Positions 1-10,589 of a stretch of DNA of 10,689 nucleotides are shown piece by piece. How positions within the stretch are numbered: the stretch's first letter is position 1; every line of letters begins with the position of its first letter. Below the pieces are notes generated by a model, which was not told where the DNA came from, searched no databases, and worked only from the letters and a program-made list of their open reading frames with translations. Source of the stretch: an uncultured Litorilinea sp. (GTDB lineage: Bacteria; Chloroflexota; Anaerolineae; Caldilineales; Caldilineaceae). The stretch covers positions 1 through 10,689 of the forward strand of contig CAMPHP010000050.1 of the NCBI GenBank assembly GCA_946885925.1, given 5' to 3'. A program made the position numbers and the translations under genes.

Positions 1-234
1 ATCGTCTTCACCTGCGTATTCATTGTAGATGCTAACCAATTGAGAGCCGACGCTCATATCAAACCACAAGTCCGCAAGCCGCGGATCAATCGGGTGTGGC
101 GCTGCCCGTGGCTTTGCCTGTGCCACCTCTTGACCTTTTGCGCTTACCGATGGACTTAGGGCGCGAGCAGCGGAGATCGGGGCACATGCCGCGGTCAAGA
201 GCGCCATCACTAAACAAATCAAATATTTAGACAT
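1..234 (-). CDS. Small secreted protein or lipoprotein, 5' part only (runs off the left edge)
   Basis: An open frame of 78 codons starts at the ATG at 234-232 and runs to the window edge without a stop, so the protein is C-terminally incomplete. The N-terminus is a clear export signal: MSKYLICLVMALLTAAC, with one basic residue and then a hydrophobic core. Two processing routes are possible. One is lipoprotein cleavage before Cys17; the TAAC box is weak because Thr replaces the usual Leu/Val/Ile at -3. The other is signal peptidase I cleavage after an AxA-like site such as ARA at residues 24-26. The mature part begins with an Ala/Pro/Lys-rich linker, followed by an acidic, more folded-looking stretch (residues 49-78). 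An AGGA box lies 5 nt before the ATG, and the gene follows the stop of the 1999-residue gene by 21 nt, so it is probably in the same transcript. I do not recognise the family. A cell-surface role is inferred from the signal and the neighbours. Confidence 0.8.
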   Translation of the reverse strand, partial: MSKYLICLVMALLTAACAPISAARALSPSVSAKGQEVAQAKPRAAPHPIDPRLADLWFDMSVGSQLVSIYNEYAGEDD

Positions 235-255: not shown

Positions 256-3200
256 TCATCGCGACAGCCGTGCAAGCCGCAACCGACCGGCAGCAATGCC
301 GGGGCTAAGTTTGGTTGCCTCCGCATAGGCAACTTGTGCCTTCTGTGCATCCCCTGCGTCGCGGTAATAATCGCCGAGGGCGAGCAAAACATCCAGTGAG
401 CCTGGCTCTTTGAGCCGTGCAGCCTCTAGATCAGCTAGTGCTGCATCAGTGCGGAGCATCTTAGTATACACGGCAGATCGCGCTAGTAACATTTCCACAG
501 TCGGCGCAATTTGATCTGCCTGCGCCAACAGAGTTGTAGCTCGCTCCACTTCACCCTGATCTACCAGAAAATCACAATAGGCAATGTAAAGAGGACCATC
601 GCGGGGTGCCAGCGCCAATCCATTTTCATACACAGCCCGCGCTTCATCAAAACGACTTTGCGCTCGATAGAGTTTCCCTAACTCCATATAAGCTTCTGCC
701 AAAGTAGGTTCCAAGATAATCGCCTGTTGGAGTTCAGCGATTGCGTCGTCAACGCGGTTGGCAGCAGCATAGGCAGTTGCCAAGCCGACATGGGTCGCGG
801 CAGCTGTAGGGGTCAGTGCCACCACCTGCTGGTAGCGCGTCATCGCCTCATCTGTCATGCCGCGGCGCAAATAATGCTCACCAAGTGCCATCAGCGCCGC
901 CGTATCGGTGGGAGCAGCAACCAGATAGGAAGTATACCATTGTTCGGCGCTATCCTCTGGTGCAATCCCCTGAATTGCCTGCACCTCAAAGTAGGCCCCC
1001 ATTGCCATTGCTAATGACGATTCATGCCCCATTTCGTCCATCGCCGTGGTCAACAACCCCACAGCATCCTCCATCCTGCCTTGTTGGAGATAGAGATCCG
1101 CCAGGGCTGCATAAAGCGGAGCTGGCTGCTTTACCATCGGCAGCCCCATTTGCAGCACAGCCTCAGCCTGCTGGAATTGTGCCTGTGAACGCCACAGTGC
1201 CGCCAAGCGAATATAGTAGGCTTCCTCATCTGGGTCGAGTGCAATCGTCTGACGATAGGCAGCCAATGCAGCCTCCGGACGCCCTTGCGACATGTAAAGC
1301 TCACCCAGTTCCGCCGAAAGCTGAGCATCGGCCATATTAAGCTCCGATGCAGCTAACAACGTTGTCAACGCTTCACCTGTTTGTCCCAGATAGCGCTGGG
1401 CGCGTGCTTGTCGTAGCACCATATCCAGATTGGTTGGCTGGCTCGCAAGTGCCTCACGCAGATAGGTCAAGCTGAGTTCATAATGTCCATAGCGTTGCAA
1501 CAAATCAATCAGTACCAGATTGACCGGCTGGTTAGGCGGGCGCACGCGCACAGCCCGCTTAAACCACTCGACAGCCTCCTTGGGATTGCCCCGCTGCTGC
1601 TCCAACACACCCATTTGAATGTGGGCATTCATGTTGGTTTGGTCGGTCTCAAGCGCGGCTGACAACATCGGTTCTGCTTCGCTATAACGTGCTTGTTCCA
1701 AGAGCAGCGAAGCCAATTCCACGTATGCCTCGGAATTGCCAGGAGTCAGCGCCAGTGTCCGGCGATAGGTGCGCTCGGCCTCATCCCACATCTTTCGTGA
1801 TTGCCATGCCTGGGCCAGCGCCAATGTTGCGCGTGGGTTGCCGGGATGATCCGCGGCGGTCTTGCGATAAAGCTCCAATGCACGTTCGGGTTCACCATGT
1901 TGCTCAAGGAAATCAGCCAGCGCCACTTGCGCCTCCACATAACCAGGCGCAACAGCCACTGCACTCTCCAACTGCGCCTGGGCTGCATCGGGCTGACCTA
2001 AGTTTTCCAATGCCAGCGCCAACCCAAGTTGTGCCTGGGGCCACCAACTATCTAGCTGGCTTGCCATGCGGTACGAATCAGCCGCCTTGGATGGCAACCC
2101 CTGAGCCATATATAAGTCGCCCAGCCCTTTATGATATTGGGCAAGCAGAGTAGGATACCAGCCCTCACGCTCTCCCTGTTCCAATGCCTGCTGGAACAGC
2201 TCAATTGCGCGCGCCTCATCCCCTGTGCTCTGTGCCAAACGGGTTAACAGGTTCAACACCCCTGTCCCATCCTCTACAGCAAAGAGTTGCCCACCATCGG
2301 CTGCCAGTTCACCCAATAGGCGCTCGGCCTGTTCCTGGGCGCTGCCAGCTGCCAGATCCACATCAGAGCTAAAGGATTGGGCAATCCCCTCCCCGTGTGT
2401 CGAGCCACCTACCGGAGGCAAGTTGCGTGCCAGCTTTGGCGCTGCCGCCTGGGCAAAGGCAACCTCCAACGCCTGTTGGCGCACTGTGTTCGCCTCGGTG
2501 TTGTTACCCGTAGCCGTCAATAGATCGGCCAGTTGGACATAGGCATTGGCAAAGTCAGGATCATTCGCAATAGCACGCCGGTAGGCATTTTCAGCCGCAG
2601 TAACATCGTTGCGCCGCCGTAACGCATCGCCATACATCAACTGCGTCCAGGCTGCTTCTGGTACTGCCGCTACTGCCGCGCTGTAATAGTTCATCGCAGG
2701 CTCATTCAAGCCCAGCTCTTCGCTCACCGTCGCCAACCGTGTATAGACATAGGCGCGGCTTGTGTCGTTACCACGTAAGACCAAACTGTTGCTCAAGGAT
2801 GCCAGTTCAAACATATCCAACGCCGACTGATAGGCATCAATGGCACGCTCGGTTTCTCCCTGACGTTGCAATTGATCACCCAGGGCCAACGCCAGCGTCG
2901 GCTCATCGGGGTTAGCACGCATGGCGGTCTCTAGCAAATCAAGCATTTCTGACTGCTCCCCACCCAACTGGCGGAATTGGTTATTCAGCGCCAGATATAA
3001 CTGCACTTGCGTAGGGTCGAGACGAAATGCTTTCTGATAGGCGACTGTAGCCGCTTGTTCGTCGTGCAAAGCGCGATGGATATCACCCTGTAAAGCATAG
3101 GCTTGTGCATTATTGGGTTGCAGCGCCAAGACCCGGTCCAACTCACGCTGCGCTTCCACCACGCGGTTCGCTGTGAGCAGGGTACGCGCCAACGCCAATC

Positions 3201-6200
3201 GGGTAACTGCCGACTCTTGTCCGGTTAGGTCCTGCACCCACACTGCGCGCCGGTAAAGTGCCACTGCACCCTCATAATCTGCTTGCGCCACTTGGACTTC
3301 CGCCGAGAGGGTCCACACATCATTAGAGAGAGGATAGTGGCTGCGTAAGCGCGTCAACAGTTCCTGTGCCTCACCATAGCGCGCTTCCTCATAATAGGCG
3401 CTTGCCAACATCAATTGGTTCACTTCACTGGGCTGGTATTCTGCGGCATTGGCATAGAGCGACAGCGCATGATCCGCACGACCACGTTGCCGCCAAAGGT
3501 CAGCCAGCGCGATCAATTCCGAGGCGTCATCGGGCAGGTTGCGATTAGCCGCTGCCTGGGCATATTGCTCACCCGCGCAAGCCTCATCTTCCATTCCCAA
3601 ACAGGCGTCGCCAGCCGCCACATGATAGCGCGCTACATTGGGCGCTTGGGTTTGGGCAATATCAAATTCCGCCATTGCCAATTCAAGCTGTCCCAATTGT
3701 GTATACAACTGGCCCAAACGATAATGCAGCACCGCCACATCCGCCTGTGCTAGTGCCTGCTTATACCAATTAAGTGCCTCGTTAAAGCGGCCGCGAACAT
3801 GTGTAATTTCACCCATGCCCACCAGCGCCAGCAGGTCGCCAGGATTTTCAGCCAATGCTTCCCGATATTGCGTCTCTGCCTCTGCCCATTGCCGTTCGGC
3901 CAGGGCTGTATTGCCCTGCACAGATGCACTCAACGCGGGTATCTCATTCACGGCATAGAGCGAATAGGATTGGTCATCCATGATCCACTCAAAGCTTTGC
4001 GGCGCAAGACGTAATTGCACCTCTAAGTTAGAGCCGCTGGGTGCGACGATATACCCCACCTGATAGCGATCCAAAATCTCTATCGTTGAGGTTGTGAGGT
4101 AACGCGATTGGAAAAAGGCCGCCTGATCGATCAGTCTTTGCAGTGCCACATCTTGCTGCGTGGCAGGAAAGACTTCGCTCGTGGTCGGCACACGATGGGC
4201 CACAATATGCGCGTTTGCCACATAGGCCGGTATCGAAACGCTCAAGTCCTGGTCTGCCATCACCGTCGTTGGGCCATGCGCTGCCGTTAATTCCGACAAC
4301 TTGCTCAAGAGCCGTTGCGGTGTTGGGAAGAAATAGGGAAACGCTGCACGCTCCTGCATGCTCTGCAAGTTGCGTAACACAAGCGGCGTCAGCAGCAGTG
4401 CCAGCGCGACCACAGTAGCAAACGTCGTATAGCGTGTCAGCACGGTTTCGCTGCGTAAGCGTGCACTTCCAGCAGTTGCGCTTACCTGCCGCCCGACAGC
4501 GCGCGCGGCCCCATTCAAACCGGGAGCCATCGCCAGCCCAATCGTCAAGGCATAGGGCAAAAGCCAGACAAAACGCCACAGAATCCAGGGCATCACCTGA
4601 TCCCCGATGAGCGGCGTGATGATTGGGTTATACATCACCATCAACACAGCCATGCTCACACTTAGTGCCAACTGCGCGCCCAGACTGCGACGAATGCCGG
4701 GCAATAGCAAGGGCAGCAGCAAGAGTGCCAGCAAATAGGGTGGCTCTAACAAAATGTTGGGGTCAGAGATATAGCGATCCAGGCTAAACAAAAGCAACCG
4801 CCGCCGTGCCATATTGACGGCAAAACGCCAGATCAAAAAGGGGTCTGTGCTGCTGTTGACCTCCGAGGCATCCAGTTGGGTTAAATCAGGCAGAGGCCCA
4901 TAGACATCCAACGTAGCAACATTGACAAAGGGCAAGGCTGGCACCAGCCGGTAGCCCACAGGCCATCCTGCCAGGCTAGTTGGATAGGAGGATGCCAAGG
5001 GCGCTTCGCCACGTGATAGCACCAACTGCACAATCGGCAGAAACATGGCCGCGATGATCAGGGAGCCTAACGCCACGCTGCGCCACATTGCCACTCGCTG
5101 CCGCACGTTCAACAGAAAGTGCAGCCCGCTAAATGCACCCAACGCCAGGGCCAACATCGCTGCAATCAGGGGATGAATCGCTGATACAGCAAGCGTACCA
5201 ATAGCCGCAGCCCACCAGACACCACGGCTACCATTGCGGAGATAGTGAATCCCCAACGCCAACACGACTGGCAGCATCGTAATCGGCACCATGAACTTAT
5301 CGGCAGTAGTGCGCTCAAAGAAAAAGAGGCTTACATTATCGCCACGCAAGAAAGGCGCAGCCATATAAATCAGCACTTGGATCGATGCGACCAACAGCCC
5401 AAATCGTCGCCCGCGCACTGGTTCCGGTAAATCCATTCCTGCGGCACGACCCAGAATATAGCTAACAAAAATCGCCCAAAGCGCGATCATGGCGCGTGAG
5501 GCGACCGCGGTTAGTTCAATCTGATCAAGCCCCGACCAGTAGGACCATAAGTAGGCGAGAGGCAAGGACTGGTTAAAGGCCATACGCACACCTGGCCCCA
5601 AGTCAGTACCAAAGAGCGGTTCTGCTTGGTTCAGGGGCAGCCCTGCCAACGCATCGGCAGCAAAAGAGTTGACAGCATAGGCATCACCGTCGATCTTATA
5701 GAGCGTGAGTGCAGGTAACATTGCCACAAAGGCCACCAGCAGCAGCGCAGCCAACGCAATCTCGTCTGCCTTCCACGGCGCGCTGGGCGTTCGCTCGACA
5801 TTGGCCCGGGCACGCAGACCAATCATAACCAGCCATGCCACGATCACGACACCCGTCGTCGCCGCCCAACCAAGCGCCAGTTCATCCACACGCCAATGCA
5901 GTAGCAGTGCCGCCAACCCTGGCAGCGCTAAGACCGCCATGCCCAAGGGGAAGGACAAGGCCAGCCGCTCTGGCTGATCCAGATCGAGTTGCACAGTCAG
6001 CAGATCACCGAGTAGATAACCTGGCAGGATCACCAATGCCAGAAATGTCAGCCAACTGGCAGCTTGGGTGGGCAACAAGGCCGCACTACCAGCCAGCACC
6101 GCCCCCCAGATAAAGATCAACCCGATTGCTAAAAAGACTTCTGTCCGCGCCAAATGATGCAACAGCGATGATGATGCCGCCCCTGGCATGATCCCTGCCG

Positions 6201-6255
6201 CTACACTTTGACCATCCATTTGTGACTTACGATTGACCAACCGATTGATCAACAA
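256..6255 (-). CDS. GT-C-like membrane glycosyltransferase fused to about 33 extracytoplasmic TPR repeats
   Basis: This 1999-residue protein has three parts. Residues 39-627 hold about 15 hydrophobic helices. The first four, with an LPGYLLG turn at 77-83, resemble a DUF1616-type N-terminus. The fifth (164-186) is followed at once by KIDGDAY, a DxD motif (D189, D191) placed like the acidic motif in the first outer loop of GT-C glycosyltransferases that use polyprenyl-phosphate sugars. Residues 628-775 form a soluble domain of the kind that ends many GT-C proteins. Residues 780-1987 are about 33 TPRs with near-perfect 34-residue spacing, broken at 1269-1330. Positive-inside counting (basic loops 148-162, 281-285, 341-344, 384-391, 521-524, 583-608) puts the soluble domain and all TPRs outside the cell. 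Initiation is at TTG behind a strong Shine-Dalgarno site; an ATG at codon 13 is the alternative. A glycosyl transferase or ligase role is inferred. The TPRs may bind acceptors or partner proteins. Family assignment is by motif and topology only. Confidence 0.93.
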   Translation of the reverse strand: MLINRLVNRKSQMDGQSVAAGIMPGAASSSLLHHLARTEVFLAIGLIFIWGAVLAGSAALLPTQAASWLTFLALVILPGYLLGDLLTVQLDLDQPERLALSFPLGMAVLALPGLAALLLHWRVDELALGWAATTGVVIVAWLVMIGLRARANVERTPSAPWKADEIALAALLLVAFVAMLPALTLYKIDGDAYAVNSFAADALAGLPLNQAEPLFGTDLGPGVRMAFNQSLPLAYLWSYWSGLDQIELTAVASRAMIALWAIFVSYILGRAAGMDLPEPVRGRRFGLLVASIQVLIYMAAPFLRGDNVSLFFFERTTADKFMVPITMLPVVLALGIHYLRNGSRGVWWAAAIGTLAVSAIHPLIAAMLALALGAFSGLHFLLNVRQRVAMWRSVALGSLIIAAMFLPIVQLVLSRGEAPLASSYPTSLAGWPVGYRLVPALPFVNVATLDVYGPLPDLTQLDASEVNSSTDPFLIWRFAVNMARRRLLLFSLDRYISDPNILLEPPYLLALLLLPLLLPGIRRSLGAQLALSVSMAVLMVMYNPIITPLIGDQVMPWILWRFVWLLPYALTIGLAMAPGLNGAARAVGRQVSATAGSARLRSETVLTRYTTFATVVALALLLTPLVLRNLQSMQERAAFPYFFPTPQRLLSKLSELTAAHGPTTVMADQDLSVSIPAYVANAHIVAHRVPTTSEVFPATQQDVALQRLIDQAAFFQSRYLTTSTIEILDRYQVGYIVAPSGSNLEVQLRLAPQSFEWIMDDQSYSLYAVNEIPALSASVQGNTALAERQWAEAETQYREALAENPGDLLALVGMGEITHVRGRFNEALNWYKQALAQADVAVLHYRLGQLYTQLGQLELAMAEFDIAQTQAPNVARYHVAAGDACLGMEDEACAGEQYAQAAANRNLPDDASELIALADLWRQRGRADHALSLYANAAEYQPSEVNQLMLASAYYEEARYGEAQELLTRLRSHYPLSNDVWTLSAEVQVAQADYEGAVALYRRAVWVQDLTGQESAVTRLALARTLLTANRVVEAQRELDRVLALQPNNAQAYALQGDIHRALHDEQAATVAYQKAFRLDPTQVQLYLALNNQFRQLGGEQSEMLDLLETAMRANPDEPTLALALGDQLQRQGETERAIDAYQSALDMFELASLSNSLVLRGNDTSRAYVYTRLATVSEELGLNEPAMNYYSAAVAAVPEAAWTQLMYGDALRRRNDVTAAENAYRRAIANDPDFANAYVQLADLLTATGNNTEANTVRQQALEVAFAQAAAPKLARNLPPVGGSTHGEGIAQSFSSDVDLAAGSAQEQAERLLGELAADGGQLFAVEDGTGVLNLLTRLAQSTGDEARAIELFQQALEQGEREGWYPTLLAQYHKGLGDLYMAQGLPSKAADSYRMASQLDSWWPQAQLGLALALENLGQPDAAQAQLESAVAVAPGYVEAQVALADFLEQHGEPERALELYRKTAADHPGNPRATLALAQAWQSRKMWDEAERTYRRTLALTPGNSEAYVELASLLLEQARYSEAEPMLSAALETDQTNMNAHIQMGVLEQQRGNPKEAVEWFKRAVRVRPPNQPVNLVLIDLLQRYGHYELSLTYLREALASQPTNLDMVLRQARAQRYLGQTGEALTTLLAASELNMADAQLSAELGELYMSQGRPEAALAAYRQTIALDPDEEAYYIRLAALWRSQAQFQQAEAVLQMGLPMVKQPAPLYAALADLYLQQGRMEDAVGLLTTAMDEMGHESSLAMAMGAYFEVQAIQGIAPEDSAEQWYTSYLVAAPTDTAALMALGEHYLRRGMTDEAMTRYQQVVALTPTAAATHVGLATAYAAANRVDDAIAELQQAIILEPTLAEAYMELGKLYRAQSRFDEARAVYENGLALAPRDGPLYIAYCDFLVDQGEVERATTLLAQADQIAPTVEMLLARSAVYTKMLRTDAALADLEAARLKEPGSLDVLLALGDYYRDAGDAQKAQVAYAEATKLSPGIAAGRLRLARLSR
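2266..2451 (-). other. Non-TPR insert that splits the repeat array in two
   Basis: Residues 1269-1330 of the 1999-residue protein break the 34-residue period. The stretch is rich in Ala, Gly and Ser and includes a flexible segment around PPVGGSTHGEG followed by an acidic, possibly helical stretch. It divides the array into about 14 upstream and 19 downstream repeats. I read it as a hinge between two solenoids; degenerate TPRs are the alternative for its second half. Confidence 0.6.
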
Positions 6256-6409: not shown

Positions 6410-7462
6410 TTAACCAAAGGGGATTTGACGGCGCAACAATGGCCCCACGAATTCGGCCACTGGCAGCGGCAGTCGAGGCCAGATGCGGCGGAATGTCTGA
6501 AACCGTTCGTCAGACTGGGCTTGTCGCGCAATACTCAAAGCATGCTGCGCCCCTGCGTCTACCCCTGGTGTCCACGTCTGCTGGTAGATAGGTCGCGAAC
6601 ATGTGGCCCATTGGCTCTTATACTTAGAAGCATTGGACCCTGCCGGGCTGCGCCCCATATCTAATGTGTCAAAACCCCGTACAATCGAATCAGCAATAAT
6701 CGTCCAATATGCTAGATAAACCGGACGCAATTCTAAGAATTCGTGGAGTGTTGCTCCCCAAGCCCCATAGGTGGCCTTGCCTAATTCCAACTGGAAATAG
6801 CCACCTATGGGCTGCGCGCCCTGATAGACCATGACGATGCTAAAGCCATTAGGGAACGCTGCGATCACTTCGGCCAAGAATTTACGCGCAAAGATGGGCG
6901 TACCAGCCTGGTGGGTAAAGCGGCTCATCACCGCATAAAAGTCATCCAACCGCTCACCAGTGCGATCCACAACCGCGGTAAGTTCGTTACGTTGGGCAAT
7001 GCGGATTTGGCGGCGGATATTGCGATCCAATTTTGCTGAGACTGCTTCCTCTCCTGCGCGCAGATCGATTGTCCAATCTTCGTGGTCGCAGGTTGTATGA
7101 AACCCGCCCGGCCATGATTCTCGCGAATCGTGCAGCACAAGACGTTTGGCACGCATCACACGGGTAAGCGTCTGTGCCTCGGTTAAGAGCGCAAGCGCGG
7201 CCTCTTCATCATCGGCACAAAGCCCCCCAGGCAGTGTAGTCAATGTAGCGCCCAACAACGGGCTGCGAACGACAAAGAGCGGCAGCACACCCGCAATCGT
7301 GCCCGGCTCATGCTCAGCCAGCAGATAGCGAGTTTCATAGCCATAGGTGTTCTGCAAGACGGTCTGCCAGCCAGCCAAATGCTGGGGTAATCCCCCCGCG
7401 CTTTGGCGTACATAGGCATCCCATCTGCCCCACTCTTGTCGGCACAATTCTGTTACACGCAT
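6410..7462 (-). CDS. FemAB/GNAT-like acyltransferase, PEP-CTERM-locus type
   Basis: This 350-residue protein matches, by pattern, the FemAB-related proteins of exopolysaccharide/PEP-CTERM loci (the TIGR03019 type). Recognisable stretches are the N-terminal HLAGWQTVLQNTYGY (residues 28-42) and YLLAEH followed by GVLPLF (47-63), which form the first acyltransferase-like half. The linker LDRNIRRQIRIAQRNE (145-160) has the basic helix usual in this family. The second half has GTPIFARKF (187-195), the glycine-rich GGYFQLELGKATYGAWGA (220-237) and DMGRSPAGSNASKYKSQW (268-285). The length is close to that usual for the family. There is no signal peptide or membrane helix, so it is probably cytoplasmic. 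FemAB relatives transfer amino acids from aminoacyl-tRNA; in glycan loci the substrate is generally unknown, and attachment of an amino acid or acyl group to a sugar is inferred. The start is 4 nt after the deacetylase stop with no clear Shine-Dalgarno site, which suggests translational coupling. Confidence 0.92.
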   Translation of the reverse strand: MRVTELCRQEWGRWDAYVRQSAGGLPQHLAGWQTVLQNTYGYETRYLLAEHEPGTIAGVLPLFVVRSPLLGATLTTLPGGLCADDEEAALALLTEAQTLTRVMRAKRLVLHDSRESWPGGFHTTCDHEDWTIDLRAGEEAVSAKLDRNIRRQIRIAQRNELTAVVDRTGERLDDFYAVMSRFTHQAGTPIFARKFLAEVIAAFPNGFSIVMVYQGAQPIGGYFQLELGKATYGAWGATLHEFLELRPVYLAYWTIIADSIVRGFDTLDMGRSPAGSNASKYKSQWATCSRPIYQQTWTPGVDAGAQHALSIARQAQSDERFQTFRRIWPRLPLPVAEFVGPLLRRQIPFG

Positions 7463-7466
7463 AGCA

Positions 7467-8336
7467 TTAGCCGTGGGTCATGGTGGCGACCGTTGGCTGC
7501 TCTCCCTCCAGAGTTGCCACGAGGTCGCGCATAGGGCCAAAACGGAAATCAGAGAAAAGTTGGTGGAGCTTTGCAGCCAGGCCACGTCGCCCGTGGTAAT
7601 GGGTTATTCGTTCACGCGGGGTGACTTGGCGATAGCGCTGGCCCAAGTCCAACTCCCACGGATGGATATAAAGGATCGCCGGTTCACCCGCTCGGTGCAG
7701 CCGTTGGATTGCCCAACGAGTCACCATATAGGGCAGCGCACGGACATAAAACCCACCCGACATCGGCCATGTCCGCCCTGCCCAACGTACTGTTGAAGCC
7801 GGTAGTTCCCAGAGGTTATGCTCCGCCATCCGGTAGGGAAGGCGTGGCGCGCCAGGGAAACCATAGAGCATATTGCGGGTGGGAAAAACACTGCTATCAT
7901 AGCGCAACCCGTTGCGGGCTAGCACCTCAAAGGCCCAGGGTGTTGTGCCATTCACCGAAAAGTAGGGAGCGCGGTGCCCTTGTGGCATTTCGCCATTCAC
8001 GCGCATCACCGCTTCAATGCTACGCGTGATCTCTGCCTCAAATTCAGCGGGTGTCAGACGATAGACGAAACGGTGATAATAGCCGTGAATCCCTAGTTCA
8101 TGCCCATCGGCACAGATATTTTCCATCAATGCCGGATGGCGGTCTGCCACATGACCTAGCGTAAAGAAGGTGGCACGTACATTATGTTCGCGCAGGATGC
8201 CAAGTAACAAGTGTGTAGCCGAGACAACTCGGCTCTCATACTCGTCCCACTTTGCCACCTGAGGATTGGTACTGGTTAATCCCTGGAACCACTCTTCCAA
8301 GTCCACCGTAAAGACATTCACCGGCAGAGCGCACAT
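7467..8336 (-). CDS. NodB-type polysaccharide deacetylase with DUF3473-type C-terminus
   Basis: This 289-residue protein would remove N- or O-acetyl groups from a glycan, using a divalent metal. Carbohydrate-esterase-4 motifs appear in order: FTVDLEEWF (residues 9-17, D12 and the acidic E14/E15), RATFFTLGHVADRHP (54-68), HELGIHGYYHR (79-89, with H84 and H88 as likely metal ligands), QGHRAPYFS (119-127), YDSSVFPTRNMLYGFPGAPR (146-165), PMSGGFYVRALPY (191-203) and YIHPWELD (223-230, H225). The last part, from SGGFY onward with HYHGRRGLAAKL, is the DUF3473-like extension of the PEP-CTERM-locus deacetylases (TIGR03006 type). No signal peptide is visible, so it probably acts in the cytoplasm on lipid-linked or nucleotide-linked sugar, as usual for this subgroup. 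It starts 3 nt after the phosphodiesterase stop; the nearest AGGA is about 17 nt away, so coupling is likely. The family call is firm; the substrate is unknown. Confidence 0.95.
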   Translation of the reverse strand: MCALPVNVFTVDLEEWFQGLTSTNPQVAKWDEYESRVVSATHLLLGILREHNVRATFFTLGHVADRHPALMENICADGHELGIHGYYHRFVYRLTPAEFEAEITRSIEAVMRVNGEMPQGHRAPYFSVNGTTPWAFEVLARNGLRYDSSVFPTRNMLYGFPGAPRLPYRMAEHNLWELPASTVRWAGRTWPMSGGFYVRALPYMVTRWAIQRLHRAGEPAILYIHPWELDLGQRYRQVTPRERITHYHGRRGLAAKLHQLFSDFRFGPMRDLVATLEGEQPTVATMTHG

Positions 8337-8339
8337 ACG

Positions 8340-10589
8340 CTAGCCCACATATCCTAAATTGCGGAGACGCTCCGCCAACAGCTTCTTGTCCTCAGCACTC
8401 AGCACCTCCCCGCCAGCACTCGCGCCGGAAGAGCCGCTCTCGTTGCCATTTTGGCTGCGTGTTGCGCGGCGTTGTGCCATTGCCGAAGCGACATCAGGCA
8501 CGAATACCTCGCTCAGAACGCGGCCATCCATATGTTCAGCGACCGGCTCATTCATCAAGTGTAAAATGGTAGGAGCTAAATCATACAAACAAGCATCCTC
8601 CACCACGGTACCCGGCTGAATAGCAGCGCCATAGGCCATGAAAATGCCGTTCATGCGATGAGTGCCCGAAATGCCCCGGCGCATGGATTCGATGATTTTG
8701 TGCGAACCAAATTCATATTCGCCAAAACCAAAGTATTCCAACCGGCGTGGCAGGAAGACAATATCAGGCGCTTTGTCTAAGAAATCGCCTGAATATAATT
8801 CCTCGCGGCGATAGATAGACTCTACCACCAGATCGCCGGTCTCAGGGTCACGCAAGGTTTGCAACTTGGCAATGATCTCCTCACGTACCCGCTCGTACTC
8901 TTCCCCAGGGTGCACACAGCCTTGTGGCTCGCGTCCCACCACATTGAGATAGACCTGCCCCACATTACCCAGCGAGTACGCTTGTGTGCGGCTCCAGTCA
9001 ATATCTTCAAAGGAGAGGAAAAGCGTCTTGAGCAATCCTTGCCCCTGACCGCGCACGACCTCGCGCTTCAATGCTCCCAGCCCCAGCCGCATGAGTGTGT
9101 CATAGACATTCATGGGTGAAAAACCTTGGCGGAACATGGCGCGTTTCAACCCTGTGCGTAAACCAGGATTGACTGTCATGAAGCCCTCTTGCAAGAGCCA
9201 GTTGTTGACATGGATAAACTTGTGGAAAGGGCCAAAGCCATGATCAGACATGACCACGAGTGTCGTATCATCAGGCAATTCATCCACATAGTGTGCTAAT
9301 TTGCCATCTAAATAGGCATAGTAGTCACGGATGGCGTTGCCATACTTCTGCGCCGCAGCAGGGTCATGTAGCGGGTGGCGCTTGTCCATGTACTTCCACA
9401 TGGCATGCGAGATGGTGTCTGTGCCATTAAAGACCACCATCGCAAAATCCCAATCCTCACGACTCCGCAGATAGTCCAGGGTCTGGATGCGTAGATCGGT
9501 GGTGCGATAGAGCCGCTCCAGGAAAGCATCGACCCCTGCATCCGAATAGGCTTGCCCAGGATCAGGATAGAGGATGTAATCACCCACTGCCGCCATAATC
9601 TCATTCAACAGATTGGGAGGATAGGTAATGGGTACTTTGAGGCTCGGTGCTGGGAGTCCCGACACCATCACACCATTCACGGGTGTAGGGGGGTAGGTCA
9701 TTGGAACATTCAAGGCACAGACACGCCGCCCCGCATCGCTCAACAATGTATAGAGCGTGGGCGCTTCCATATCCAATGCTGTGACCGGCGAGAAGGTATA
9801 TTCCCCCTCGTCGCGCGCAATCCAATCATACAAACGATGCTTGCCAGGGTTGACACCTGTTGCAAAGGAAGTCCAAGCAGGGCCAGTCATGGGAGGCGTG
9901 GTGCTACGCAATGAACCATGCGCGCCTTCGTCCATCAGCCGCTTGAGTGTAGGCAAATAGCCCGCCGCTGCCCACGGTTTGATCAAATCAAAGGTTGCGC
10001 CATCCAGCCCCAACACCAACACCTTACTGGGCTTGTCACTACTCGGTTTGTTCCTGCCCGTGGCTGTATTACTAGTGGGCTTATCACTACTAGTCTTCTC
10101 ACCAGCCAGTCCATCAGGACTGTGCTGTCCATTCGGTTGTCCCACAGGTGGGGTCATGGCGTCCATCGCTTGGGAAAGTACCGGCGCTGCCTGCACGGGG
10201 GCAGGTGGCACGGGCGCGGCTGTGTGGCTTGCCATGACGCGCTCTAAATGGCGCAAGCGCCATTCGAGCATCCCCATCGCCTGCGCCAAATCGCGAATGC
10301 GGTTGGCCTGGAATGAAATCGTCACTGTCTGCGAGAGCAAAAGCACCATACAGAACAGAATGCCAAAGACCAGGATCAGCGTTGGGGCATAGGTCACGGC
10401 AAAGAGCCGCGCTAAGAAACCTACGAGCGGTTCGACTACGATTAAGATAAAAATAGCAATACTTGCACCCATCCACACCAGCGCGTATTCCTCCCGCAGC
10501 CGGTGCTTTCGAACTAATTGAATTGTGACCAGAAGCAGTGTGAGACCAAAAATCACCGCGATCACTTGTTGCTCAATGGGAATGCGCAT
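8340..10589 (-). CDS. DUF2304-type membrane domain fused to an alkaline-phosphatase-superfamily phosphodiesterase
   Basis: Residues 1-118 look like DUF2304: hydrophobic helices at about 8-26, 37-56 and 67-88, the LREEYALVWM signature (31-40), and an amphipathic basic stretch (95-118) that may form a short coiled coil. Residues 119-188 are a Pro/Ala/Ser linker. Residues 189-690 are a type I phosphodiesterase/phosphohydrolase (COG3379-like). Visible active-site elements are D196 in VLGLDGATF, a probable nucleophile T235 in PPMTGPAWTSFATG, D391 and H395 in GTDTISHAMW, D449 and H450 in MSDHGFGP, and H644 in GTHRMNG; together they supply the expected two-metal site. A polar Ser/Gly linker leads to the C-terminal RLRNLGYVG. 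Basic loops after helices one and three place the catalytic domain in the cytoplasm. Substrate is unknown; a phosphorylated sugar or lipid intermediate of the glycan pathway is inferred. The ATG has a perfect AAGGAG 8 nt upstream. It is first of the three tightly packed genes. Confidence 0.93.
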   Translation of the reverse strand: MRIPIEQQVIAVIFGLTLLLVTIQLVRKHRLREEYALVWMGASIAIFILIVVEPLVGFLARLFAVTYAPTLILVFGILFCMVLLLSQTVTISFQANRIRDLAQAMGMLEWRLRHLERVMASHTAAPVPPAPVQAAPVLSQAMDAMTPPVGQPNGQHSPDGLAGEKTSSDKPTSNTATGRNKPSSDKPSKVLVLGLDGATFDLIKPWAAAGYLPTLKRLMDEGAHGSLRSTTPPMTGPAWTSFATGVNPGKHRLYDWIARDEGEYTFSPVTALDMEAPTLYTLLSDAGRRVCALNVPMTYPPTPVNGVMVSGLPAPSLKVPITYPPNLLNEIMAAVGDYILYPDPGQAYSDAGVDAFLERLYRTTDLRIQTLDYLRSREDWDFAMVVFNGTDTISHAMWKYMDKRHPLHDPAAAQKYGNAIRDYYAYLDGKLAHYVDELPDDTTLVVMSDHGFGPFHKFIHVNNWLLQEGFMTVNPGLRTGLKRAMFRQGFSPMNVYDTLMRLGLGALKREVVRGQGQGLLKTLFLSFEDIDWSRTQAYSLGNVGQVYLNVVGREPQGCVHPGEEYERVREEIIAKLQTLRDPETGDLVVESIYRREELYSGDFLDKAPDIVFLPRRLEYFGFGEYEFGSHKIIESMRRGISGTHRMNGIFMAYGAAIQPGTVVEDACLYDLAPTILHLMNEPVAEHMDGRVLSEVFVPDVASAMAQRRATRSQNGNESGSSGASAGGEVLSAEDKKLLAERLRNLGYVG
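10028..10095. repeat. Short imperfect direct repeat in the phosphodiesterase linker
   Basis: The plus strand carries TGGGCTTGTCACTACT (from 10028) and TGGGCTTATCACTACT (from 10076), 48 nt apart with one mismatch over 16 bases. Both encode SSDKP in the linker (residues 167-171 and 183-187). The spacing is in frame, which fits a small internal duplication that lengthened the flexible tether. Confidence 0.6.

What the first reader, a model, noticed from the sequence alone, without database searches (positions are those of the whole stretch)
256..6255. GT-C-like membrane enzyme fused to about 33 extracytoplasmic TPRs: a bacterial parallel to TMTC O-mannosyltransferases
The sequence shows a many-helix domain with a DxD motif (D189/D191) just after a helix whose outer end it follows, then a soluble domain, then a very long TPR array. 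Positive-inside counting puts the array outside the cell. Established knowledge: eukaryotic TMTC1-4 have a GT-C membrane domain followed by TPRs in the ER lumen and O-mannosylate cadherins, with the TPRs thought to handle protein acceptors. The inference is that this protein glycosylates surface or secreted proteins, or assembles a surface polymer, with the TPRs choosing the acceptor. It may be convergent and need not be a homologue of TMTC.
Basis: partly seen in the sequence, partly recalled or inferred. Interest (0 to 1): 0.7.

Follow-up and report, generated by a model that had tools for sequence, protein, structure and literature searches.

The report
Membrane sugar transferase with TPR arm
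A Chloroflexota bacterium encodes a very large membrane enzyme that probably moves single sugars from a lipid carrier onto something on the cell surface, with a long built-in repeat arm that likely holds the target; the target is still unknown.

Summary
One 1999-residue ORF (256-6255, minus strand) encodes four extra N-terminal helices, a GT-C-fold membrane domain, its extracytoplasmic alpha/beta domain, and about 33 TPR-like helix pairs. AlphaFold2 gave mean pLDDT 90.7 for residues 1-776; the 15 Foldseek PDB hits with E <= 0.001 are AftA, ArnT and OST-complex chains. D189-G190-D191 is invariant in 121 of 121 sequences. Charge counting and two Cys invariant in 110 of 110 long sequences put the TPRs outside. 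All 14 hits with an organism name are Chloroflexota.

The finding did not cover the operon. Relatives carry a PpgS/AglJ-like GT2, DUF2304 (GacJ-like) plus phosphodiesterase, a NodB-type deacetylase, a FemAB-like protein, the GT-C/TPR gene, a secreted protein and an MFS protein. This resembles multi-component extracytoplasmic glycosylation with an amino-sugar donor.

Best reading: it transfers a polyprenyl-phosphate-linked, probably deacetylated or N-acylated sugar to a surface acceptor held by the TPRs; protein or polysaccharide is undecided. It is not a TMTC by the features tested, and prokaryotic GT-C+TPR proteins are already noted in print. New variant of a known kind.

The parts
256..6255 (-). 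GT-C/TPR gene, 1999 aa, TTG start
   Evidence: ORF; homologues, most of similar length; the close relative L001 starts at an aligned TTG; a purine-rich GGGAGAGGGAG lies just upstream of the start (read)
5797..6144 (-). N-terminal extra module, four TM helices (residues 38-153), outside the GT-C core
   Evidence: AlphaFold2 helices; most structural matches start at model residue 153-169
4336..5796 (-). GT-C membrane domain (residues 154-640)
5683..5691 (-). D189-G190-D191, catalytic-type DxD motif in the first outer loop of the GT-C core
   Evidence: 121 of 121; 10 of 10 in the alignment with divergent members
3946..4335 (-). Extracytoplasmic alpha/beta domain (residues 641-770)
256..3945 (-). 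TPR array, about 33 helix pairs (residues 771-1999)
   Evidence: Pfam TPR families down to E 6.7e-70; shuffle control; AlphaFold2 mean pLDDT 86.7 for residues 800-1999
3577..3603 (-). Invariant Cys885 and Cys893, either side of one TPR turn; likely disulfide (inferred)
   Evidence: 110 of 110 sequences of 1690-2110 aa, query included; 51 of 110 have no other Cys; helix positions
2266..2430 (-). Low-confidence linker inside the TPR array (residues about 1276-1330)
   Evidence: pLDDT under 50 at model residues 476-532
6410..7462 (-). FemAB/GNAT-like protein (XrtA-associated type, below family cut-off)
   Evidence: PF13480 E 3.6e-15; TIGR03019 185.8 bits, cut-off 260.35; in 8 of 11 relative loci
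7467..8336 (-). NodB-type polysaccharide deacetylase with DUF3473 (XrtA type, just below cut-off), no evident signal peptide on reading
   Evidence: PF11959 E 2.6e-38, PF01522 E 6e-20; TIGR03006 269.9 bits, cut-off 276.2; in 9 of 11 loci
8340..10589 (-). DUF2304 (GacJ-like membrane domain) fused to a type I phosphodiesterase domain
   Evidence: PF10066 E 3.6e-20, PF01663 E 6.6e-41; match in 9 of 11 loci, one only 36% identical and one cut by the contig end
1..234 (-). Start of a secreted lipoprotein gene (runs off the window), homologue of L001:16025-17119
   Evidence: translation with lipobox-like LTAAC; family alignment of 8 relatives

Best explanation
The protein is an extracytoplasmic GT-C glycosyltransferase of a multi-component trans-membrane glycosylation system. 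Proposed order: (1) a cytosolic PpgS/AglJ-like GT2, helped by the DUF2304 membrane domain, makes a polyprenyl-phosphate monosaccharide, probably a HexNAc; (2) the cytosolic NodB-type deacetylase frees the amine and the FemAB-like protein may re-acylate it; (3) a flippase (perhaps the operon's MFS protein) turns the lipid over; (4) the GT-C domain, using D189/D191, moves the sugar to an acceptor outside; (5) the TPR array holds or selects that acceptor. Shown by computation: GT-C fold, DxD conservation, outside placement of the TPRs (predicted), conserved operon. Inferred: sugar identity, order of steps, flippase, TPR role. The acceptor class is left open; the first two rivals below are its two versions, with polysaccharide slightly favoured.
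Against: No activity, sugar or acceptor has been tested. The GT2 lies outside the window and is inferred from relatives. FemAB is not found in divergent L050 and MFS not in L004, though the held DNA reaches far enough; L049 has a different phosphodiesterase and a GNAT ORF upstream in its 2.7 kb, no deacetylase or FemAB match. No flippase is identified; GtrA-family genes exist elsewhere in 6 of 6 member genomes searched, so the MFS role is a guess. The remote homologue G091 keeps only one of the two Asp (E-D-G). The fold does not fix donor type: the top structural matches by Z are OSTs, which use pyrophosphate-linked oligosaccharides.
Confidence: 0.63

Rival explanations
1. Acceptor version A: polysaccharide-decorating GT-C. 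It adds an amino-sugar side branch to a wall or extracellular polymer, the TPRs acting like the polymer-binding TPRs of PgaA or the carbohydrate-binding modules of other large GT-C enzymes.
For: Nearest functional neighbours of the operon parts decorate polysaccharides: GacI/GacJ/GacL and PpgS/Rv3632/Rv3779; ArnC/D/T decorates lipid A (recalled). PgaA TPRs bind PNAG/dPNAG. Other GT-C enzymes carry carbohydrate-binding domains. The remote relative G091 lies among ORFs that read like sugar-nucleotide, glycosyltransferase and flippase genes, with two DegT matches (roles read from ORF beginnings, not scanned).
Against: No polymerase gene is among the seven conserved operon genes. The polymer is unidentified.
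Confidence: 0.45
2. Acceptor version B: protein O-glycosyltransferase working like TMTC/TMEM260. The TPRs bind surface proteins and the GT-C puts a single sugar on Ser/Thr.
For: Same layout of GT-C then TPRs outside. For TMTC1-4 and TMEM260 the TPRs are proposed to recruit substrate domains (PMC11292533 passages). The conserved operon holds no polymerase (other flanking ORFs were not all scanned). Concave-type positions are better conserved in the first 14 repeats (mean 0.67) than in the other 19 (0.56; from the per-repeat values).
Against: Deacetylase and FemAB neighbours are not expected for O-mannosylation. No acceptor protein was identified. No TMTC or PMT family match listed.
Confidence: 0.3
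3. Oligosaccharyltransferase-like enzyme that transfers a whole glycan from a pyrophosphate carrier to protein.
Confidence: 0.08
4. Part of an XrtA exosortase/PEP-CTERM surface system, with the array as a fused PrsT.
For: Deacetylase 269.9 bits (cut-off 276.2), FemAB 185.8 (cut-off 260.35) and TPR array 303.8 (cut-off 312.2) match XrtA-system models.
Against: All are below cut-off. Exosortase is found in 4 of 9 member genomes against 41 of 120 genomes of the class of G001 (which includes G001), so no clear association; the genomes are mostly incomplete assemblies. The PrsT model rings in 13 of 14 control genomes at E <= 0.001, over cut-off in 1.
Confidence: 0.05

Closest known systems
TMTC1-4 (GT105) and prokaryotic TMTC-like proteins; TMEM260 (GT117)
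   Same: GT-C membrane domain followed by TPRs on the outer/lumenal side, acidic motif in the first outer loop
   Different: Here 15 TMs with a four-helix N-terminal module, an alpha/beta domain between membrane and TPRs, about 33 rather than about 10 TPRs, no TMTC-type Pfam match listed, and an amino-sugar-type operon
GacI/GacJ/GacL group A carbohydrate side-chain system
   Same: GT2 plus small DUF2304-type membrane partner making a lipid-phosphate sugar, then a GT-C outside
   Different: DUF2304 is fused to or beside a phosphodiesterase; deacetylase and FemAB are added; the GT-C carries TPRs
PpgS (Rv3631)/Rv3632/Rv3779 GalN decoration of arabinogalactan
   Same: PpgS is the best NCBIfam match of the GT2 (below cut-off); helper protein; deacetylated amino sugar; final transferase
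   Different: A deacetylase gene is in the operon here, the acceptor is unknown, and a TPR array is absent there as far as recalled
ArnC/ArnD/ArnT L-Ara4N system (recalled)
   Different: No TPRs in ArnT; acceptor lipid A, which most Chloroflexota are thought to lack (recalled)
Pfam DUF6541 / DUF1616
   Same: Weak sub-threshold matches around residues 50-184
   Different: Below cut-off; comparison of the family profile with one DUF6541 protein from G001 gave 17% probability over 65 columns

Membership tests
GT-C superfamily | GT-C membrane fold with extracytoplasmic domain | tested here: met
GT-C superfamily | DxD or similar acidic motif in the first outer loop after the first core TM helix | tested here: met
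   D189/D191, 121 of 121, after helix 163-183; only one Asp kept in remote G091
GT-C superfamily | Sugar transfer from a polyprenyl-linked donor | not testable with these tools
   operon is consistent only
TMTC (GT105) | Match to TMTC_DUF1736 or PMT Pfam models | tested here: not met
   none listed for the query at E <= 10 or among the 25 families reported for 21 members at E <= 1; a missing HMM match is not proof of non-homology
TMTC (GT105) | 11 TMs leading into TPRs | tested here: not met
   15 TMs assigned by hand from the model and an alpha/beta domain before the TPRs; 11 TMs for TMTC from PMC7801869 passages
TMTC (GT105) | TPRs on the outer/lumenal side | tested here: met
   by prediction
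TMTC (GT105) | O-mannosylation of cadherin-type domains | not testable with these tools
   no experiment possible
TMEM260 (GT117) | DUF2723 domain | tested here: inconclusive
   not among the matches listed; no profile-profile test made
Oligosaccharyltransferase (STT3/AglB/PglB) | WWDYG-type motif in the soluble domain | tested here: not met
   absent on reading the sequence; motif recalled
Multi-component trans-membrane glycosylation system | GT2 polyprenyl-phosphate sugar synthase with the GT-C | tested here: met
   in relatives, 7 of 11 loci, the other 4 starting too close to the gene; GT2 activity inferred from weak family match; not visible in the window itself
Multi-component trans-membrane glycosylation system | Dedicated flippase | tested here: inconclusive
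   MFS gene in 8 of 11 loci; GtrA genes elsewhere in 6 of 6 genomes searched
XrtA/PEP-CTERM system | Exosortase in the genome | tested here: not met
   4 of 9 member genomes, background 41 of 120 over cut-off
DUF6541 | Score over the Pfam cut-off | tested here: not met
   query 19.1 bits, cut-off 29; 14 of 21 members match at E <= 1, best 3.4e-5; precomputed PF20176 labels on a few homologues

The most novel reading that the evidence does not exclude
A Chloroflexota-specific, undescribed glycosyltransferase family in which a GT-C enzyme carries its own wall-spanning 33-TPR acceptor reader, transferring a deacetylated, N-acylated amino sugar to chosen surface proteins: a convergent bacterial counterpart of TMTC/TMEM260 with new sugar chemistry.
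Probability: 0.25. Interest if true: 0.75.

Novelty: new variant of a known kind. Interest (0 to 1): 0.5.

Why it matters
How GT-C enzymes find their acceptors is open; the TPR role in TMTC and TMEM260 is still a proposal (PMC11292533 passages). Here the enzyme, a 33-repeat arm and the likely donor-making genes form one conserved operon that could be rebuilt in a laboratory bacterium, so donor, acceptor and TPR role can be tested separately. It would also be a handle on surface glycosylation in Chloroflexota, filamentous bacteria common in wastewater sludge and hot springs (last point recalled).

Tried and rejected
Exosortase link: suggested by neighbour models near XrtA cut-offs, not borne out by co-occurrence. 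PrsT identity of the array: the model reacts to TPRs in general. Sequence links to solved GT-C structures: none with the single protein or the 21-row profile, both at E <= 10. DUF6541 kinship: weak. Full-profile genome search: all 298 genomes rang because of TPRs; in the capped match list 7 of 298 (G001, G002, G061, G064, G098, G174, G218) had strong matches through the membrane domain, so 7 is a lower bound; G091 later proved a remote full-length homologue (an MFS control gave 0.5% probability). TPR model against PDB: the 50 rows shown are general TPR/repeat proteins (IFT-A, SKI, Ctr9, OGT). Tandem DNA repeats and tRNAs: none. Families of the secreted downstream protein: none convincing. No paper in the library holds the word DUF6541; one holds DUF2304. 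The greedy ORF table hid FemAB and the phosphodiesterase in L047; corrected by tblastn. The downstream gene was first read in a wrong frame and redone. Paper searches on Chloroflexota/protein glycosylation and NaxD/FlmK were seen as listings only and not used. Rows dropped before counts: one search used 110 of the 137 proteins then held (1690-2110 aa only); one search used the same 110.
Full report
What is there. The minus-strand ORF 256-6255 encodes 1999 residues from a TTG start. In the full protein the 25 Pfam families shown, of 45, are TPR or related repeat models; residues 1-776 alone give only sub-threshold DUF6541, DUF1616 and DUF6050. A search with residues 40-780 found 146 proteins, 120 listed, at 52-80% identity; most are near 2000 aa (range 1122-3235) and all 120 carry TPR labels (candidates capped). 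A search with the N-terminal piece found 20 proteins, 4 of them already; 11 of the 20 carry no TPR label. The six loci are titled Caldilineaceae, Chloroflexi or Anaerolineales.

Active site. In 121 aligned sequences D189, G190 and D191 never vary; nor do N228, Q229, E314, R315, D319, K320, H361, W557, W560 and R561. In three divergent members D189-G190-D191, E212, R224, N228, R304, R315, D319, K320, H361, R477, W557, R561 and W564 remain, while E314 is lost in two and W560 and Q229 in one. A remote homologue, G091 (profile probability 100%, E 9.9e-43 over 654 columns; MFS control 0.5%), keeps R315, D319, K320, H361 and R561 but has E-D-G in place of D-G-D. A residue overlay on the catalytic Asp of ArnT or STT3 could not be printed; the start positions make it plausible only.

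Topology. With 15 TMs set by hand from the model, mean K+R in loops under 70 residues over 110 sequences is 21.5 inside and 5.8 outside; nearly all of the outer value (5.4) comes from the first outer loop and the R-D...E-R loop. Two long outer stretches were left out of the sums. Cys885 and Cys893 are present in 110 of 110 sequences of 1690-2110 aa and are the only Cys in 51 of 110; 27 shorter or longer proteins were not counted. They sit on either side of one helix turn of a TPR. A disulfide there is an inference, but it fits an extracytoplasmic array.

TPR array. The model shows 32 helix pairs and a cap; with one pair assigned by eye at 772-805 that makes 33. The scan score far exceeds shuffles, its unit count only modestly (31 versus a mean of 24.1, maximum 28). 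One disordered linker lies near 1275-1331. The array is less conserved than the enzyme (0.59 versus 0.72). Concave-type positions are more conserved than other non-structural ones (0.607 versus 0.507; p 9.5e-9, but sites are not independent, position sets are recalled and repeat starts were set by hand); the first 14 repeats average 0.67 and the other 19 0.56 (from the values). Array length varies: homologues up to 3235 aa and an ORF of 3224 aa in L048.

Operon. In 11 relative loci (L001 supplied the GT2, secreted-protein, MFS and DegT queries and so matches itself) the usual order is GT2, DUF2304-phosphodiesterase, deacetylase, FemAB, GT-C/TPR, secreted protein, MFS. GT2 is found in 7 of 11; in L002, L003, L048 and L049 the held DNA starts too close to the gene. 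DUF2304/phosphodiesterase matches in 9 of 11 (L048 cut by the contig end, L049 only 36% and without the DUF2304 part), deacetylase in 9, FemAB in 8, the secreted protein in 9 (before the gene in L050), MFS in 8, DegT aminotransferase in 3. Real misses, where DNA reaches: FemAB in L050, MFS in L004. L048 and L050 carry an extra phosphodiesterase gene. The window shows the last part of this order, with the start of the secreted protein at 1-234; the GT2 would lie just beyond the DUF2304 gene, which begins at base 10589.

What the neighbours mean. The GT2 is Pfam GT2 with PpgS (polyprenyl-phospho-GalNAc synthase) as best NCBIfam match, far below cut-off, then AglJ and a dolichyl-phosphate hexose transferase. 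DUF2304 is described as typical of GacJ-like proteins next to gacI (PMC8327497 passages), and GacJ enhances the UndP-GlcNAc synthase GacI (PMC10821137 passages; review PMC8035078 passages). In mycobacteria PpgS with Rv3632 makes the lipid-linked GalNAc, unidentified factors flip and deacetylate it, and Rv3779 transfers GalN (PMC9671496 passages). The deacetylase here shows no signal peptide on reading, so it probably acts inside. This gives a coherent donor pathway and is the main addition to the finding.

Acceptor. Nothing found decides it. Protein: TMTC/TMEM260 analogy (PMC11292533 passages). Polysaccharide: PgaA TPRs bind PNAG and the deacetylase PgaB (PMC9384988 passages), and other large GT-C enzymes carry carbohydrate-binding domains (PMC11127046 passages; PMC8035078 passages). 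I favour polysaccharide slightly.

Known or new. Prokaryotic GT-C+TPR proteins are in print: PMC7801869 (passages; Discussion section read) mentions full-length TMTC-like homologues in many prokaryotes. I found no description of this family in the paper searches, which cover only an open-licence library. It fails the TMTC features tested. I therefore call it a new variant of a known kind.

Noticed in passing
window 1-234 (-) and L001:16025-17119: A conserved secreted protein lies next to the GT-C/TPR gene; some members have lipobox-like signal peptides and a C-terminal hydrophobic stretch, with E138, E147, D150 and D190 (L001 numbering) invariant in 8 aligned relatives. No family match; might be a TIM-barrel hydrolase.
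   Followed up: partly
window 8340-10589 (-): DUF2304 fused to a type I phosphodiesterase; the charge pattern of the three helices, read by eye, suggests the phosphodiesterase lies in the cytoplasm. In L004, L006 and L046 the two parts appear as separate ORFs.
   Followed up: partly
L055:7772-14070 (G091): A remote homologue with TPRs (1330 aa ORF) is followed by a 722 aa ORF that also matches the family profile weakly, in a locus that reads like polysaccharide synthesis.
   Followed up: partly
P0125 (739 aa), P0128 (777 aa): Family members without TPR labels whose longest contigs exceed 100 kb; could be split genes, frameshifts, contig-end pieces or true TPR-less forms.
   Followed up: no
L048:5759-15433, P0107, P0108, P0115: Members of about 3100-3235 aa with much longer TPR arrays on the same enzyme domain.
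   Followed up: no
L001:18470-19702: DegT-family sugar aminotransferase near the operon in L001, L002 and L003, hinting at an amino sugar.
   Followed up: partly
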